A DNA stretch of 64,000 nucleotides, taken from the NCBI RefSeq assembly GCF_000507245.1, contig NC_023035.1, forward strand, positions 1,589,501-1,653,500. Reading direction: 5' to 3'. The DNA comes from Salinispira pacifica. Lineage in GTDB: Bacteria > Spirochaetota > Spirochaetia > DSM-27196 > Salinispiraceae. Below are positions 3,945-15,170 of the stretch, one piece after another. Position 1 is the first letter of the stretch; every line of letters starts with the position of its first letter. The notes beneath the pieces are model-generated. The model saw only the letters and a list, made by a program, of their open reading frames with translations, did not search any database and had not been told where the DNA came from. Position numbers and translations under genes: made by a program.

Positions 3945-3964
3945 TTTGACCACCTGGTCACATT
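3945..3964. promoter_or_regulatory. Operator-like site, copy 1 (TGACCA-CC-TGGTCA)
   Basis: The 20-bp sequence at 3945-3964 contains 6-bp inverted arms TGACCA and TGGTCA separated by two bases. Its exact reverse complement occurs at 5771-5790. This copy lies 71 bp upstream of the leftward MFS gene. The size and symmetry fit a TetR-type dimer site, but no TetR gene is present in the window. Confidence 0.6.
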
Positions 3965-5770: not shown

Positions 5771-5790
5771 AATGTGACCAGGTGGTCAAA
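5771..5790. promoter_or_regulatory. Operator-like site, copy 2, inverted relative to 3945-3964
   Basis: Exact 20-base reverse complement of 3945-3964, containing TGACCA-GG-TGGTCA. It lies upstream of the rightward gene at 5881, mirroring copy 1 upstream of the leftward MFS gene. A single unseen repressor could therefore control the outward-facing genes on both sides. Confidence 0.6.
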
Positions 5791-6830: not shown

Positions 6831-9092
6831 ATGAATGTCGAACAACAGCTTGATCGGATCCAAAAGGTGCACGGAATTGATTTCGGATTGTTTGTGCTGG
6901 CGGTTCATGCCTTTGCAGAGGGGGTAATGAATGCCAGGATGGGGAATTTCGAGGAGCACAAGTATCTGGATGCCAACGGCAAGGAGCTTGACCCCAGTTT
7001 TTACAAGAAAGTGGGGATCTACGCCGATTTTCTGACCGCAAGCTACGGCTGGAATACCTTTCATGAATTCCGATCCATAAAAGATACCTACAGTTTAAGC
7101 AATGAGGTGCGTCATAAATTTGCCCAGCTCACCATGGATGAGGTGCGCAGCAGTATTCACTCCCTGCGGAAGTTCTGCCGTTTGAGCCGGATCAGTTCAC
7201 CTGTACTTGAGTCACTGGGGGATGAGCTGGAGGAGTGGCAGAGTCGGGTGAGTGCCGACGAGCTGCAGCAGGAGCTTGAGTTTCTCAAAGGCCATAATGT
7301 CCGCCTTATTACCCAGTTGAAGGAAGTAAAAGAGAAACAGAAGGAGTCCGCCGGGCTGGCTCAGGACGCCGGGAGGCTGCGCCATGAGCTTGAAGAAAAG
7401 GAGCGCAGGCTTGCCGAGATTGAGGCAACATCCGCAGACCGAAAGGACCGTATAGATGAGCTTCGCCGGGAGAGGAGGGAGCTGCAGGAGCGCCTGAAGG
7501 AGACAGAGGAGAAACAGGGTAAGCTTGAGAAGCTTCGAGCCGCTGAGGATGAGGTTCTTCGGATGTCACTTCTCACCCGCAGCAGGCGGGATTACGAGGA
7601 GAGTTTTTTCCGTCTTTCCGATGAGCAGGCTTCCGCCCTGAAGGCGATACGCGGAGGGGGGAGCTATCTGATTAAGGGCGGAGCGGGTAGCGGAAAATCT
7701 GTGGTGCTCCTCCAGGCTCTGCGGGAGCGGATAGAGGATGTCCGTTCCCAGACGGATATGTTTGCAGACCCCGACACTCTCATGGATGCGGGTTTTGCCC
7801 TGTTGACCTTCACCCGTACCCTGGTGAAGTACAATGAGTATGTAAGTTCAATTCTAAAGATTGCCTCCCAGCCGGTGTATATGGCAACGGTGGATCAGTT
7901 TATTCATGATCTGTTCAGGCGGGAGTATCCTGATGTGGGTATCAGATACGATAAAAAAGATGTGGTGCTTGAGGAGCTGGCTGAGCTGCGGGATCTGCAC
8001 GATCCTTCGGACTCTCTGAAGCTGGAAGATGAGGAGCTTTTCACGGAGATTGATGCCTATATTTGGGGTTACGCCCTCAGCCGGGAAGAATATGTCGACG
8101 CCATGGTGTCCCGTTCGGGACTGCGGAAGCGGCTGAACGGATCCTCCAGGGAGCTGGTGTGGATGATTCAGCAGGATCTTGCCCGTAAGCTGCCTGAGCT
8201 GATGTTTGTAACACGGAATCTTGCATGCAGACTGCTTCTTGAGAGTGGCGGTAACCGAGCTGCCGACAGGGTGTTCAGCGCGTTGTTCATAGACGAGGTG
8301 CAGGATCTTGATCCTGTGGTACTGAGGCTGATGAGTTTCCACGCCCGGGATGTGGTGCTGGCAGGAGATACGGGGCAGTCTATTTACGGGCTGCGTTCCC
8401 CCTATGTGCGCGCGGGGCTGGATTTCCGGGGCAGAAGCCGGGTGTTAAAGACGAATTTCAGAAATACGTTGCCCATGGTGAGGCTTGCCCAGTCGTTCCG
8501 TTCCAGGATGGCATCAGCATTGCATGAGAATACAGAACAGTCGGCGGGTTCTGCAGCAGGAGATGAGTATGTATCGGCTGCCCTTCGTCCCGGCCCTCCG
8601 GTGGAGTTTTTTCAGGGTTCGAAGGATGCGGCCAAGCAGGTGCTTGTTGAGCGGCTTCACTACTATCTGGATGTTCTGAATTACGATGCGGAGAATGTGT
8701 GTATTATCGCCCCCTACACCCGGCTTTTGGGTCATTTGAGAGATAAGGTTCTGGCTCCGGAAGGGATTGACGGGGTGGATGTGAAGCGAGGCAGTACGGA
8801 CGGCGATGCCCGGGAGTTTGATTTTGAAGCGAGCCGCGGAGTGCGGCTGGTAAGTATGCACTCGGCAAAGGGTCTGGATTTTCCAGTGGTGATTCTGTAC
8901 GCACAGCATTTTGAGGCACCGGGGGGAAGTGATTTGAGCGATGAACTGAGAGAGGAGATCAAGGGGAATTTGCTGTATGTAGCTGTTACCCGGGCTCTTG
9001 ATCATGTTGATGTAATTGCCCTGGATGGTTTCGGAACCGCTGGTGCGGAGAAGCTGCTGCTGGATTCGATTCATGAACAGCAGGCTGTGTAG
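6831..9092 (+). CDS. UvrD/Rep-like superfamily 1 helicase with unusual N-terminal domain
   Basis: A 753-residue protein. Residues ~1-130 form a helical domain I cannot name. Residues ~160-245 are a strongly charged coiled coil. The SF1 ATPase core follows: Walker A GGAGSGKS (~283-290), DEVQD motif II (~487), AGDTGQSIYG motif III (~510), TNFRN motif IV, VSMHSAKGLDF motif V (~674) and YVAVTRALD motif VI (~716). All key residues look intact, so it should be an active ATP-dependent DNA or RNA translocase. The N-terminal coiled-coil architecture differs from repair UvrD/PcrA. It precedes the helicase-HNH pair by 188 bp on the same strand and may belong to it, but its base composition is closer to the chromosome than theirs. 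Confidence 0.85.
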   Translation: MNVEQQLDRIQKVHGIDFGLFVLAVHAFAEGVMNARMGNFEEHKYLDANGKELDPSFYKKVGIYADFLTASYGWNTFHEFRSIKDTYSLSNEVRHKFAQLTMDEVRSSIHSLRKFCRLSRISSPVLESLGDELEEWQSRVSADELQQELEFLKGHNVRLITQLKEVKEKQKESAGLAQDAGRLRHELEEKERRLAEIEATSADRKDRIDELRRERRELQERLKETEEKQGKLEKLRAAEDEVLRMSLLTRSRRDYEESFFRLSDEQASALKAIRGGGSYLIKGGAGSGKSVVLLQALRERIEDVRSQTDMFADPDTLMDAGFALLTFTRTLVKYNEYVSSILKIASQPVYMATVDQFIHDLFRREYPDVGIRYDKKDVVLEELAELRDLHDPSDSLKLEDEELFTEIDAYIWGYALSREEYVDAMVSRSGLRKRLNGSSRELVWMIQQDLARKLPELMFVTRNLACRLLLESGGNRAADRVFSALFIDEVQDLDPVVLRLMSFHARDVVLAGDTGQSIYGLRSPYVRAGLDFRGRSRVLKTNFRNTLPMVRLAQSFRSRMASALHENTEQSAGSAAGDEYVSAALRPGPPVEFFQGSKDAAKQVLVERLHYYLDVLNYDAENVCIIAPYTRLLGHLRDKVLAPEGIDGVDVKRGSTDGDAREFDFEASRGVRLVSMHSAKGLDFPVVILYAQHFEAPGGSDLSDELREEIKGNLLYVAVTRALDHVDVIALDGFGTAGAEKLLLDSIHEQQAV

Positions 9093-9280
9093 GCCGCGGA
9101 AGCAGCAACAGGTTTTATGTTCACAACTGGTTTCGGGTTTTCGGTGAGTTCAGGATTGATGCTAAACCAGGATTCGCCGGTGGGGTATTTGCTGAACTTT
9201 GCCGGGAAGAGGGTTGTGTTGAAGCGGTTGGTGTTGGGGTATTCATGACGACGTTTTCTAATAATTCAGGATGGTTTTAG

Positions 9281-12200
9281 ATGGCAACCTCTCCGTATTT
9301 CGAGCATTTGTTAACCAAAGCTATTGAGGAGAGAATTCATTCTCATCCTGATCCAGCTTTGGCTGCTGTTGAACGAATTGATGAAGATGCTTTCACGTCC
9401 CTTGCCCAACAATATGCTCGTTCACTGCTGAGACTTGCCTTTTCTGAAACCGGTACCTTGGAACGCTCACGAGAGTTGTTGTCTCGGCTTCAAAATCTCA
9501 TTGCTGAATATATCCCAGACTGGCAGCCAGATGAATTGATAGGTTCCGATAGCGGTAAGCATGAACTTCTGCGTGCATTGTTCTCTCCTCAGGATACATC
9601 CAAGAATCAGGTGAAAGAGCGGGTTCATAACGAGGTTCCCGTTTTAGGTTTCACTCTCCCTGGCTTATTTACAGGAACGAATTCTGCATTATCATTGGTA
9701 GATGAATTAAAGAGAGAAATACAAAGTGCAAGTGAGATTAATCTCATTATATCATTTATCCGGTGGTCAGGGTTGAAGCTCCTTTTGCCGTCACTGGAGC
9801 AGGCAGTCCAGCGAGGTGCTCCGGTGAAAGTGTTGACAACTGTGTATCTGGGCGCAACTGAAAATAGATGTATTCAGGAATTTTCCCGTATAGGTGCTCA
9901 ACTGAAGATTTCGTTCAATACGTTCCGTGGCCGGCTGCATGCTAAATCGTGGATTTTCCAAAGAGATAATAATTTCAATGTAAATGGTTCATACGATGGT
10001 AATCTTGGGACAGCTTACGTCGGTTCAAGCAATGTAAGCCGCGATGCGCTTCAGGATGGAGCAGAATGGAATATTAAAATCACACAACGGGAAGTCCCCG
10101 GAGTGTACTCTGAACTTAGAGAAAGTTTCTCAGCTCTCTGGGAAGATCCTGAGTTCGAGATGTACTCAGAATCTGATAATGAGCGAGTTAAAGAGGCATT
10201 AGCCGCTGCACCTTATATTAAGGACTCATTGCGTTTAAGCGACCTGCCTGCTGACCTGCGCCGACAGGTTTTAGATTATTATAAAAACAGGAAAAACCGC
10301 TCTTACAGTGAGACTGTGGAGGAGAGTATCGGCAGCCTTGTTCGCCCTTTCGCATTTCAAGAAGAAATACTGGAACGAATACGGTCGGAACGTAAGGTGC
10401 ATAACCGTTTCAGGAATTTAGTTGTAGTCCCAACAGGTGCGGGGAAAACGATGATTGCCGCCTTTGATTATAAGCGAATTTGTGATGAGGCGAATTCTCA
10501 GCCCAGACTTCTATTTATTGCTCACAGAGAGGAACTGCTTTTTCAAGCCCGGCGAAGCTTCAGACAGGTGCTGGGCGGATATAACAGCTTTGGTGAGATC
10601 TGGAAGGCCGATGTTGAACCATCAAAATGGCAGCATGTTTTCGCAAGTATTCAAACAATCCATAGAAGACGAGATGAATTGCTCCAAAGATGGCCAGATT
10701 TGGATTGGTTTGAATATGTTGTTATTGATGAAGCCCATCATGGAGCTGCCGAATCGTATCGATTTGTGGTTGATCAGATAAAAGCCAAATGGTTATTGGG
10801 TCTTACCGCTACTCCTGAGAGGATGGATCTGAGTGATATTTCCCAGGATTTTGAGGGTCGGTTTGCCGCGGAAATGCGTTTAGCTGAAGGGATTCGAAAA
10901 GGCTTGCTCTCACCTTTTCATTATTTTGGAATTGGGGATGATACACCGGATTTGAGCTCAGTAAGGTGGAACGGCAAGTATGTACTTAATGATCTTGAGC
11001 GGAAGTTGGTGAATGAACCCTATGCAGATGCAGTTATTTCATCGGTAAAAAAGATCACTGCTGATTACCGTCAAGTTCGTGCGATTGGGTTTTGTGCGAG
11101 TATTGTTCAGTCGGAGTTTATGGCCCGGCATTTTTCTCAACACGGACTCCAGTCAATCTCATTGAGTTCTGTGAGTCCTCAGGTCGATAGGGAACGGGTA
11201 AAACAGATGCTGACTGATGGAGATATTCAGTATGTGTTTACTGTCGATCTCTTTAATGAAGGTGTGGATATTCCCGCGGTTGATACCGTGCTATTTTTAC
11301 GCCCTACAGAGAGTCTTACGATTTTTCTTCAACAGCTGGGACGGGGGCTTCGAAATTTTCCGGGCAAGGATGTATTAACAGTAGTTGATTTTGTGGGGAA
11401 TGCTCACCAAAGCTATGACTTTACCCATAAATTTCGAGCAATGCTAGGCTGCACCAGCACACAAGTCCGGGGAGAAATTGAAAATGATTTTCCATCACTA
11501 CCTACGGACTGTGCAATTGTCTTGGATGAAAGCAGTCAAAACCGAATTCTTCAGCACATCGAGATGCAGATCCCCAAGACTCGTTCCCGACTACTGGATC
11601 TTATCAATCAGTACGACAATATCACGCTTCCAACGTTTTTGCATGATAGCGGCTTTGACCCGGAATTTCTGATCTACAAAGCCGGTCTCTGGTATCAAAT
11701 TCAAGAAGAGTTGGCGAATCCGGAGTATTTTCCCTCGAAGATGGAAACTATCTTCAAAGAGTTCATCCTGAACGCTGTTCTCCAGCTGAACAGTATCTCT
11801 GTATGCCAAAGATGGAAAGATGCAATCACCGCCAGTTTACATACACAAACTCTATCCAATGACGGTACCTGGCTTTGTTACGAAATTCTTCGGAATAGGA
11901 AGGGCAGCCAAAGTCCGTGGAAACGGCCTGAGGATCTTTGGGCATGGCTCTTCTCTAATTCTAAGCGAATCCAAGAACTGATGTTCTGGCTTTCATATCA
12001 GGAAGATAGAATCGAAGTGATGGAAGAACCTATGTCTGATCTCACACTACCAGGTGCTGCAGTGTTGAAGCATTTCGCCGCATATACCTGGCCCGGAATC
12101 AAATGGGCGTTTAGACAATCGGACTGGGAAAAATCTCCTGTAGAGCAGGGTGGGGTAAATCAGATAAAGGACAATGAAGGGAAAATCATTCTCCGATACC

Positions 12201-12553
12201 TTATGATTACAGTTCACAAGAAAGAGAACCTGTTCAGTTCCGAAACCATGTATCAGGACTGGGCGTTAAACAGAGATGTGTTCCAATGGGATTCGCCGAA
12301 CAGTTGGACGCCGTCCAAAGGCCAGGGGAAAACCTTTTTACAGCAAATTGAACGCGGTGTGCCTCTCTATGTATTTGTTCGAGAGACAAAGCAGGATGAA
12401 TACAGACGTGCTTTACCGTTTATTTTTATGGGACCGGTGCACATTGTACCAGACAGCGCGAAAGGAGAGTATCCTTTCAGTTTGCGTTTGCATCTGGAAA
12501 AAACTATGCCTGTAAGCGAATTTCGCAGGTTATGTATGCCAGTTGCCGGATAA
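9281..12553 (+). CDS. PLD-SF2 helicase-DUF3427 protein, candidate defence effector
   Basis: A 1090-residue multidomain protein. A phospholipase D-like domain (~residues 115-290) carries HAK (~221) and GSSNVS (~249), one HKD half-site. The SF2 helicase follows: Walker A VPTGAGKT (~384-391), DEAH in VIDEAHHG (~484), GLTATPE (~507), NEGVDIP (~660) and QQLGRGLR (~685). The last ~350 residues fit the DUF3427 C-terminal domain often fused to such helicases. Expected activity is ATP-driven DNA translocation with nucleic-acid cleavage. The gene is visibly A+T richer than the flanking rbs genes and is followed 107 bp later by an HNH nuclease gene. The start has AGGATGG 7 bp upstream. The family call is good; the role in defence is inferred. 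Confidence 0.85.
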   Translation: MATSPYFEHLLTKAIEERIHSHPDPALAAVERIDEDAFTSLAQQYARSLLRLAFSETGTLERSRELLSRLQNLIAEYIPDWQPDELIGSDSGKHELLRALFSPQDTSKNQVKERVHNEVPVLGFTLPGLFTGTNSALSLVDELKREIQSASEINLIISFIRWSGLKLLLPSLEQAVQRGAPVKVLTTVYLGATENRCIQEFSRIGAQLKISFNTFRGRLHAKSWIFQRDNNFNVNGSYDGNLGTAYVGSSNVSRDALQDGAEWNIKITQREVPGVYSELRESFSALWEDPEFEMYSESDNERVKEALAAAPYIKDSLRLSDLPADLRRQVLDYYKNRKNRSYSETVEESIGSLVRPFAFQEEILERIRSERKVHNRFRNLVVVPTGAGKTMIAAFDYKRICDEANSQPRLLFIAHREELLFQARRSFRQVLGGYNSFGEIWKADVEPSKWQHVFASIQTIHRRRDELLQRWPDLDWFEYVVIDEAHHGAAESYRFVVDQIKAKWLLGLTATPERMDLSDISQDFEGRFAAEMRLAEGIRKGLLSPFHYFGIGDDTPDLSSVRWNGKYVLNDLERKLVNEPYADAVISSVKKITADYRQVRAIGFCASIVQSEFMARHFSQHGLQSISLSSVSPQVDRERVKQMLTDGDIQYVFTVDLFNEGVDIPAVDTVLFLRPTESLTIFLQQLGRGLRNFPGKDVLTVVDFVGNAHQSYDFTHKFRAMLGCTSTQVRGEIENDFPSLPTDCAIVLDESSQNRILQHIEMQIPKTRSRLLDLINQYDNITLPTFLHDSGFDPEFLIYKAGLWYQIQEELANPEYFPSKMETIFKEFILNAVLQLNSISVCQRWKDAITASLHTQTLSNDGTWLCYEILRNRKGSQSPWKRPEDLWAWLFSNSKRIQELMFWLSYQEDRIEVMEEPMSDLTLPGAAVLKHFAAYTWPGIKWAFRQSDWEKSPVEQGGVNQIKDNEGKIILRYLMITVHKKENLFSSETMYQDWALNRDVFQWDSPNSWTPSKGQGKTFLQQIERGVPLYVFVRETKQDEYRRALPFIFMGPVHIVPDSAKGEYPFSLRLHLEKTMPVSEFRRLCMPVAG

Positions 12554-12660
12554 TACACAGAAATTGAGCGTAGCAGAGTTCACTTGAAACGGTAGTATGA
12601 GGGCTTCGATCAACACATTTTATTCCGGATGTAATTCAACCGAAGGAAAGTTTAGCGAGT

Positions 12661-13791
12661 ATGCATAAGGGAAATGTAATTTTTCACGGAGAACAGCTTC
12701 CATACTCTTCACGAATTTGCATTAGCTGTCTTCAGCAGATGTTTAAGCACACCGCTGCATCGTATAAATATATCTATTTTCTTTCGATCCTTGATGTACT
12801 GGAAGAAAATAGTTTTGAATCCCCTGTGATAAGCCTCGATGATGTACTGGTAAGGATGTTGGTTAATGCCTGGTATCCTCATGTGTATTTCAAGCTCAAC
12901 TTTGGAGTGGGTGATAGAATCGCCCACACAATTGATGCGCTTTGTTTGGCAGAAATAGAGCTGCCCATTCAAAGCAATAGCTCAAATGAGCTGTCGATGA
13001 TTATTCGATCAAAGAAATATCAGAACAATAATCTATTAAATATGGTTCCATATCGGATATTGTCGCCATTTTTCAGAGATGAATTACAGGGAATCAAGGA
13101 TTCAGATCGAAACCGACTGATAGCCCAGCTTGCCGAACGACTGTTTGAAAATCGCCGACCGCTTTATATGTTTATCGATAATGCAACCAAGGTCATTGTT
13201 CACCATGATTGGATGTTGTATCTATACGAGAATATCGGACTGGTGAGGGCTTTCACAGCATGGAATTACCTCGATTATATGCAGCGTCGGAACCCTTCTG
13301 TCCCCAATATCAAGGATAAACTGTTTCCCCCGGTCGCCCGAAATAGTCTGTCTAATCAAACCACATATTGGAAGATTGCTTTAGGACATAGCAGGATCCG
13401 TTGTATTTACTCCGGGAATATACTCAATGAAAATACTATGAGCCTGGACCACTTTATTCCCTGGTCCTTCGTCGCTCATGACCAAATGTGGAATTTGCTG
13501 CCTGTTGAAAAGAATATTAATTCCTCAAAATCAAACAGATTGCCTTCCATGAAAAAGTATCTCAATCCGTTTATTGAGCTTCAGTTCGCAGGTCTTCAGG
13601 CAATTCACAGAAATTCCAATGACAATGTGTGGAGGAAGGTCACAGAACCCTATGTTTCGGATCTAAATATTCCAAAAGACAATCTCTTCCAGATAGAGAG
13701 TTTCGGCAGGGCCTTAAAACAGACCATAATACCCCTTGAAACGATTGCAAGGAATCGCGGCTTTGCTGGAGATTGGGTATATAAAGGCTAA
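12661..13791 (+). CDS. HNH endonuclease-domain protein paired with the DUF3427 helicase
   Basis: A 376-residue protein. The N-terminal part (TAASYKYIYFLSILDVLEEN) resembles a leader of some HNH proteins that I recall only as a pattern. The nuclease centre is at ~247-290: RCIYSG, then SLDHFIPWSFV, MWNLLPV and NSSKSNRLP. The DHxxPWS form is also found in Cas9-type HNH domains, but no other Cas feature is present. The metal-binding D/H and the downstream N residues appear intact, so DNA cleavage is likely. AAGGAAAG precedes the ATG at slightly long spacing. Low G+C like the helicase, 107 bp downstream of it on the same strand; the two probably form one transfer unit. Confidence 0.8.
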   Translation: MHKGNVIFHGEQLPYSSRICISCLQQMFKHTAASYKYIYFLSILDVLEENSFESPVISLDDVLVRMLVNAWYPHVYFKLNFGVGDRIAHTIDALCLAEIELPIQSNSSNELSMIIRSKKYQNNNLLNMVPYRILSPFFRDELQGIKDSDRNRLIAQLAERLFENRRPLYMFIDNATKVIVHHDWMLYLYENIGLVRAFTAWNYLDYMQRRNPSVPNIKDKLFPPVARNSLSNQTTYWKIALGHSRIRCIYSGNILNENTMSLDHFIPWSFVAHDQMWNLLPVEKNINSSKSNRLPSMKKYLNPFIELQFAGLQAIHRNSNDNVWRKVTEPYVSDLNIPKDNLFQIESFGRALKQTIIPLETIARNRGFAGDWVYKG

Positions 13792-13884
13792 CACTTCTTG
13801 TTTTGAAAAAAAGCTCATTGAACTGCCCCGGACAAGTCGGACTGGCGGAGCACAAATAACGCCAGAATTGTGTATAAAAAAGCA

Positions 13885-14038
13885 ATATTCATAATTTCAC
13901 AGGAGTCTGTGTTCAGGTCCGGGATGTTGCCAATCCCGATCAGAACTCAGGTCCTGTTATGTTTTACGGCGCCCGGGCAGAAATGCACTCGAGTATACCG
14001 TAAGCTTTCAGCCGCTCCCCATCCGGGAGCGGCTTTTT
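13885..14038 (+). ncRNA. Candidate structured RNA downstream of the HNH gene
   Basis: This ~154-nt stretch has no gene but can fold well. Hairpin A: ACAGGA 13899-13904 with TCCTGT 13952-13957, GTTC 13911-13914 with GAAC 13943-13946, and GGGAT 13921-13925 with ATCCC 13933-13937. Hairpin B: TTACGG with CCGTAA (~13964-14003), enclosing GCA-GAAA-TGC with a GNRA loop. It ends in the rho-independent terminator at 14011-14038. A TATAAA box at 13873-13878 could start it near 13885; the -35 is weak. I cannot match it to 6S, SRP, tmRNA or RNase P RNA. It could instead be the structured 3' UTR of the HNH mRNA. Confidence 0.45.
14011..14038 (+). terminator. Rho-independent terminator
   Basis: GCCGCTCCC (14011-14019) pairs perfectly with GGGAGCGGC (14025-14033) over a 5-nt loop and is followed by TTTTT. 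It closes the helicase-HNH transcription unit or the candidate RNA. Confidence 0.9.
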
Positions 14039-14216
14039 GGGGGCCTGGTGTATGGACTTTGCCGTAGTCTTTCCCCCGCAATATGGCAATCATCTTCCCG
14101 TGGAAGAATACCTGAAGTTTACTGTCTTTGATCCCCTTTGTAGTCGAAGGGCTGCTGCTCTGCGCGTATGTTTCTTGTGTCTTCCAAAGATGATCCTTCA
14201 CTTTATTCGTATGATG

Positions 14217-15170
14217 TCAGCCTTGGAGCTTTTCTCTGCGCTGCCGTTTGGTCCACATGTCCAGAATGACTGCCAGAATAAATATGGTTCCTGTGATTAC
14301 CTGTTGGACGTATGATGATACGCCGGTGAGGTTCAGTCCGTTTGCTAGTACGCCCATGATCAGGGCGCCGGCGACTGTGCCAAGACTGGTTCCGGCTCCC
14401 CCCATGAGGGAAGCTCCACCCAGCACGGTTGCCGCAATTGCCTGGAGTTCCAGGCCCACCGCTGCCTGGGGCTGGGCGCTCCACAGACGTGCGGTCAGGA
14501 GTATACCTCCCAGGGCTGCCGTTCCTCCGCTGAAGGCGTACGCCCCCAGTTTCACCAGCCGGATTTTCACACCGGCCAGACGTGCTGTTTCTTCGTTCCC
14601 TCCCAGGGCATATAGGTGGGCGCCGAAGGGAGTACTCTGGAGAATAACGGTGCTCAGCAGCAGCACAAAGAGGAGTACCAGTGCGGTAACCGGTATCGGT
14701 CCGATGGTTCCGCCGAAGGCGGTATAAAAGTCTCCCAGGCCGGAGATGGGGCTTCCCTGGGTGTAGAACAGCGTAAGCCCCCGGGCGATGGCCATCATGG
14801 CAAGAGTTGCTACGAAGGGCTGCAGGCGTCCGAATACGATAAAACCTCCGTTCACCAATCCAATGAGAACGCCGAGGAGTATGGCCCCCAGCATGGCAAT
14901 AGGGGCGGGTACTCCCATGTTTACGATCATGCCGGCGGAGATGGCTCCGGTAAGGGCCACCAGGGATCCAACAGAGAGGTCGATTCCCCCGGAAATGATG
15001 GTGAATGTAACCCCGATGGCCACAATGGCAAGCATCGAGGATTGGTCCACAATGTTCAGCAGGTTGCCGAATCTGAGAAACCTGGGGGAGAGAAGGGAAA
15101 ACAAAATGATGAGCCCCAGCAGAATGAGCAGGGTGCTGTATTTGGCGGCAATTTTTCCTACGCGGTTCAT
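14217..15170 (-). CDS. rbsC: Ribose-type ABC transporter permease, second copy
   Basis: A 317-residue inner-membrane permease of the RbsC/AraH (BPD_transp_2) family with 8-10 hydrophobic segments and the family motif SGGIDLSVGSLVALTGA near residue 60. It forms the channel of a sugar importer with RbsA and RbsB. Its start overlaps the end of rbsA by 4 bp, so it is translationally coupled. The operon has another permease upstream (17771-18718); the two differ clearly in sequence, so a heterodimeric channel or separate specificity is possible. The last gene of the leftward rbs operon. Confidence 0.9.
   Translation of the reverse strand: MNRVGKIAAKYSTLLILLGLIILFSLLSPRFLRFGNLLNIVDQSSMLAIVAIGVTFTIISGGIDLSVGSLVALTGAISAGMIVNMGVPAPIAMLGAILLGVLIGLVNGGFIVFGRLQPFVATLAMMAIARGLTLFYTQGSPISGLGDFYTAFGGTIGPIPVTALVLLFVLLLSTVILQSTPFGAHLYALGGNEETARLAGVKIRLVKLGAYAFSGGTAALGGILLTARLWSAQPQAAVGLELQAIAATVLGGASLMGGAGTSLGTVAGALIMGVLANGLNLTGVSSYVQQVITGTIFILAVILDMWTKRQRREKLQG

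What the first reader, a model, noticed from the sequence alone, without database searches (positions are those of the whole stretch)
13885..14038. Structured non-coding RNA downstream of the HNH gene
Three separate stems are seen: ACAGGA/TCCTGT with an inner GTTC/GAAC and GGGAT/ATCCC hairpin, TTACGG/CCGTAA with a GCA-GAAA-TGC inner hairpin (GNRA tetraloop), and a perfect terminator. A -10-like TATAAA precedes it. The density of nested pairing exceeds that of the surrounding intergenic regions. It could be a guide or regulatory RNA for the island, a 6S-like RNA, or just a long 3' UTR.
Basis: seen in the sequence. Interest (0 to 1): 0.7.

Follow-up and report, generated by a model that had tools for sequence, protein, structure and literature searches.

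The report
Orphan structured RNA with a terminator
Behind a DNA-cutting (HNH) gene in a salt-loving spirochaete lies a short stretch that would fold into three hairpins as RNA, the last a probable transcription stop; it has no detectable relatives, so it is most likely the folded tail of the gene's message or a home-grown small RNA, not a guide RNA.

Summary
All stems are at the stated places; the 154 nt fold 6.0 s.d. below dinucleotide shuffles, the core without the terminator 4.0. It is 5th of 357 intergenic 120-nt windows sampled in this genome. By raw energy hairpin H1 is ordinary: 154 places in 464 kb fold as well. The genome is Salinispira pacifica (size identical). No Rfam family matches at gathering score and no 6S is found in the genome. 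A model built from this sequence finds only itself at a meaningful score in 296 phylum and 394 class genomes, and nothing in 80 loci of the neighbouring HNH family. So a partnership with HNH is unlikely, and covariation cannot be tested. The HNH protein shows no RuvC domain. H1 and the terminator form in any transcript; hairpin H2 forms only if transcription starts near 13885, where promoter matches are weak. Best reading: structured 3' end of the acquired helicase-HNH operon, possibly released as an sRNA; an sRNA with its own promoter is the close rival. Ordinary kind, orphan sequence, low interest.

The parts
13873..13878 (+). -10-like TATAAA; no good -35 (AGCACA at 13849, 18 nt spacer, 8 of 12 in all)
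   Evidence: common motif; not listed by the sigma-70 scan
13868..13895 (+). alternative weak promoter TTGTGT-16-CATAAT (8 of 12)
13899..13957 (+). H1: 59-nt imperfect hairpin, 23 pairs, -29.1 kcal/mol; forms in every transcript length tried
13963..14004 (+). H2: hairpin with GAAA loop, about -12 kcal/mol; forms only if the transcript starts near 13885-13902
14010..14038 (+). intrinsic-terminator-like hairpin, perfect 10-bp stem, T-run 14034-14038
   Evidence: not listed by the scan
12661..13791 (+). HNH_4 endonuclease gene, 376 aa, GC 0.41; stop codon 219 nt before the terminator
9281..12553 (+). ResIII helicase with PLD and DUF3427 (PADLOC mREase_IV), GC 0.45, same GC-poor segment
6831..9092 (+). 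UvrD-like helicase gene, GC 0.54, first of the three same-strand genes
14217..15170 (-). convergent ABC-transporter permease gene (BPD_transp_2)

Best explanation
The stretch is the structured 3' end of the transcript of the acquired ResIII-HNH gene pair. The hairpin at 14010-14038 ends transcription before it runs into the convergent ABC-transporter operon, and the strong hairpin H1 just upstream shields the message from 3'-to-5' decay. A stable fragment of about 140-150 nt (H1, H2, terminator) may be left behind and could act as a small RNA. Shown: the stems, their excess over shuffles, the order HNH - H1 - H2 - terminator - convergent gene. Inferred: that it is transcribed from the HNH side, terminates there, protects the message, or is released.
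For: H1 and the terminator keep mean pair probabilities of at least 0.78 and 0.98 in all five transcript models, including read-through from HNH. HNH and the element are on one strand with no terminator listed on the + strand between 13791 and 14010. No promoter of 9 of 12 or better precedes the element. The next gene is convergent, where a terminator is expected. The sequence is an orphan not shared with 80 HNH relatives, as 3' UTRs usually are (recalled).
Against: The terminator lies 219 nt behind the HNH stop; of 11 intergenic terminators sampled within 1 kb of a same-strand stop the median is 57 nt, and only one other is at 200 or more, inside a tRNA-derived array. H2 is destroyed in read-through transcripts (mean pair probability 0.02-0.18) but forms from a start near 13885 (0.89), which favours a separate RNA. 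The T-run is short. No transcript data exist here.
Confidence: 0.45

Rival explanations
1. An independent small RNA of about 150 nt, started near 13885 by its own weak promoter and ended by the terminator, peculiar to this lineage; it would work by base pairing with mRNAs or by binding a protein.
For: Three-hairpin fold z -6.0; H2 forms only in this transcript; terminator unusually far from the HNH stop; most structured 116 nt upstream of any of 38 sampled terminators.
Against: Best promoter matches only 8 of 12, not listed in the scan; no relative in sequence or structure in 295 other phylum genomes and 393 other class genomes, so no sign of selection on the fold.
Confidence: 0.3
2. A DNA element: the near-palindromic H1 works as a cruciform, a protein site or an island border, not as RNA.
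For: Both strands fold equally; the RNA model matches its own reverse complement; it lies at the GC step from 0.41 to 0.57 that marks the edge of the GC-poor genes.
Against: Single copy in the genome; no direct or inverted repeat shared with the left borders beyond shuffles; adjoining terminator-like hairpin with T-run on the + strand.
Confidence: 0.1
3. Chance or decayed sequence with no function beyond the terminator.
For: Structures as stable as H1 occur about every 3 kb; 4 of 357 intergenic windows score better; no conservation.
Against: z -4.0 for the core without the terminator, 0 of 200 shuffles as good.
Confidence: 0.12
4. A partner RNA of the HNH or helicase proteins (guide or antitoxin-like RNA).
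For: Adjacent to an HNH_4 gene whose HNH domain weakly matches that of Cas9.
Against: Nothing like it in 80 HNH loci or in the phylum genomes with HNH homologs; no RuvC domain; no repeat array in the stretch (two short two-copy repeats only).
Confidence: 0.03

Closest known systems
3'-UTR ends and 3'-UTR-derived sRNAs of bacteria (e.g. MalH, PMC8081044: abstract start seen in the search listing; Borrelia 3' UTRs, PMC10319736: passages seen)
   Same: structured RNA right behind a coding gene, ending in an intrinsic-type terminator
   Different: no transcript known here; unrelated sequence; 3' UTR of about 247 nt
Intergenic trans-acting sRNAs with their own promoter (general class, recalled)
   Same: about 150 nt, stem-loops, terminator
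   Different: weak promoter, no relatives, no target known
6S RNA (RF00013; shape recalled)
   Same: size near 150-190 nt
   Different: separate hairpins instead of a rod with a central open region; no Rfam match
HEARO / omega RNA of IscB (PMC9755519: abstract start seen in the search listing; features recalled)
   Same: structured RNA beside an HNH gene
   Different: protein lacks RuvC; no family match; RNA not conserved beside the nuclease

Membership tests
Intrinsic terminator | GC-rich stem directly followed by a U tract | tested here: met
   10-bp perfect stem 14010-14034 and T-run 14034-14038; but only four unpaired T, and the scan did not list it
Intrinsic terminator | transcription really ends there | not testable with these tools
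   no RNA data
Independent sRNA | own promoter | tested here: inconclusive
   best matches 8 of 12; none listed
Independent sRNA | conserved or covarying structure in relatives | tested here: inconclusive
   no relatives found at all; covariation cannot be counted
6S RNA RF00013 | covariance-model match | tested here: not met
   also none elsewhere in the genome, model rings in 5 of 14 controls
6S RNA RF00013 | single rod with a large central internal loop (recalled) | tested here: not met
   MFE is three separate hairpins
HEARO/omega RNA with IscB | covariance-model match | tested here: not met
   no Rfam family at gathering score; only one sub-threshold match, to another family
HEARO/omega RNA with IscB | neighbour protein with RuvC and HNH | tested here: not met
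   only HNH_4 at residues 248-295; model mostly helical, Foldseek best E 0.059 with partial overlap
HEARO/omega RNA with IscB | RNA conserved beside the nuclease | tested here: not met
   0 of 80 HNH loci

The most novel reading that the evidence does not exclude
A lineage-specific non-coding RNA made from the edge of an acquired helicase-HNH defence pair, used as a regulatory or protein-binding partner of that pair in Salinispira alone.
Probability: 0.04. Interest if true: 0.6.

Novelty: new member of a known kind. Interest (0 to 1): 0.17.

Why it matters
If transcribed it would be an addition to the non-coding RNAs of an isolated spirochaete genus, and a reminder that strong folding beside a nuclease gene is not evidence of a guide RNA. 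As it stands it is an ordinary operon end or a local sRNA candidate.

Tried and rejected
Rfam scans of the window and of 13700-14200 (only Plastid-psbN at 22 bits against a cut-off of 50, on the terminator hairpin, taken as chance). DNA searches in phages and plasmids (none), own genome (single copy), 3 other family genomes (only short matches, best E 0.014), 295 other phylum genomes and 393 other class genomes. Two short matches passed 0.001 and were taken as chance: 26 nt inside what looks like coding DNA (L052), and 28 nt of a like hairpin in G498 (L170). Structure model R1, built from one sequence given twice: weak hits at E 0.44-0.93 are at noise level; in scans over 40 genomes the tool uses stricter filters. 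The transporter flank has no close ortholog in the family to compare (best 38-41% outside the own locus).

A 65-codon GTG frame at 13870-14067 runs through the terminator, and a 14-codon frame at 13959-14003 is short enough for chance; neither is proposed as a gene. Attenuator or riboswitch control was rejected because no same-strand gene follows directly. Island-border repeats were sought and not found. In one search the minus-strand HNH loci were read in the wrong direction; one search repeats those seven. The 12 HNH relatives were compared by eye only.

Full report
What is there. The fold is 6.0 s.d. below dinucleotide shuffles, 4.0 without the terminator. The opposite strand gives z -5.8, so the near-palindromic H1 does not reveal the strand; the T-run and the gene order point to the + strand.

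How unusual. Along the 64 kb, the 120-nt window starting at 13861 is 4th of 710. Among 357 windows in 96 intergenic gaps of 150 nt or more (the window and 400 kb of the same chromosome, crude ORF calls) the one at 13852 is 5th; three of the four above it are in a tRNA and tRNA-derived array locus, and the first is a hairpin behind an ORF (sequences read). Of 39 terminators found with my own criteria, 38 could be scored, and the 116 nt before this one have the most negative z, -4.18. Against this, local structures at least as stable as H1 occur 154 times in 464 kb of one strand, 18 of them outside called ORFs. So the structure is real and locally striking, but not rare by energy.

Setting. The genome has exactly the size of Salinispira pacifica L21-RPul-D2, 3,782,798 bases (PMC4511686, passages read). 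The element lies between an HNH_4 gene and a convergent ABC-transporter permease gene. ResIII-PLD-DUF3427 (GC 0.448) and HNH (0.409) are GC-poor against the UvrD-like gene (0.538) and the transporter genes (0.575, 0.539), so those two look acquired (inference). No border repeats were found.

Relatives. In sequence: one copy in its own genome; 0 convincing in 3 other family genomes, 295 other phylum genomes and 393 other class genomes; none in phages or plasmids. In structure: a covariance model of this sequence alone scores itself at 145 bits, and otherwise only noise (E 0.44 or worse) in 296 phylum genomes and 394 class genomes, the own genome counted in both. HNH homologs occur in 31 of 296 phylum genomes including this one, and 582 stretches in genome contigs were confirmed before the best 80 were kept; the model finds nothing in those 80 loci, 642,908 bases. 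HNH therefore manages without this RNA elsewhere. Since no relative exists in the material, covariation is untested, not refuted.

Which transcript. From a start at 13885, H1, H2 and the terminator have mean pair probabilities 0.95, 0.89 and 0.98. From the HNH stop codon, H2 falls to 0.05 while H1 (0.96) and the terminator (0.98) stay. The promoter candidates reach 8 of 12 and the scan lists none near. The terminator lies 219 nt behind the HNH stop, against a median of 57 nt for 11 sampled intergenic terminators within 1 kb of a stop, this one included. These hints pull both ways. I put the 3'-UTR reading slightly ahead, because it needs no promoter and H1 plus terminator are what survive in every model; the independent sRNA is a close second.

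Guide RNA and 6S. The HNH protein matches only HNH_4 in Pfam and weakly the HNH part of Cas9. Its predicted fold (pLDDT 87) is mostly helical, and Foldseek gives no match below E 0.059, with low TM-scores. No RuvC was seen, so an IscB/omega-RNA reading fails. 6S: no Rfam match here or elsewhere in the genome (a model that rings in only 5 of 14 controls), and the shape is wrong.

Literature. Searches for Salinispira pacifica, structured noncoding RNAs, spirochaete 6S, 3'-UTR sRNAs and HEARO/IscB showed no title or abstract start about this element; papers were seen as listings, passages of PMC4511686 and PMC10319736, and the outline and abstract of PMC11109978.

Noticed in passing
window 3947-3960 and 5775-5788: Perfect palindrome TGACCANNTGGTCA twice in the window; 8 sites in the whole genome, 0 for the reversed control pattern. 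It looks like an operator of a TetR/MarR-type regulator; the 152-aa gene at 1262-1720 looks MarR-like (from its sequence, not searched).
   Followed up: partly
L063 13872-15203 (own genome 1553872-1555203): Tandem array of about 228 bp, 5.8 copies, directly behind a tRNA gene; the units carry pieces resembling the tRNA's 3' half in both directions and a strong terminator-like hairpin.
   Followed up: partly
window 6831-13791; L133 1821-5125: A UvrD-like gene and HNH lie next to each other in another spirochaete MAG (L133), 1 of 80 HNH loci, while 6 of 80 have a ResIII-like match directly behind HNH: the partners of this HNH family change.
   Followed up: no
window 9281-12553: ResIII-PLD-DUF3427 protein matches PADLOC mREase_IV at 1.7e-166.
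   Followed up: no
window 13959-14003: Frame of 14 codons (MFYGARAEMHSSIP) that ends just before the terminator; probably chance.
   Followed up: partly
L065 13557-13676: Most negative z (-7.69) of 357 intergenic windows: a long hairpin with A- and T-runs, terminator-like in both directions, behind an ORF.
   Followed up: no
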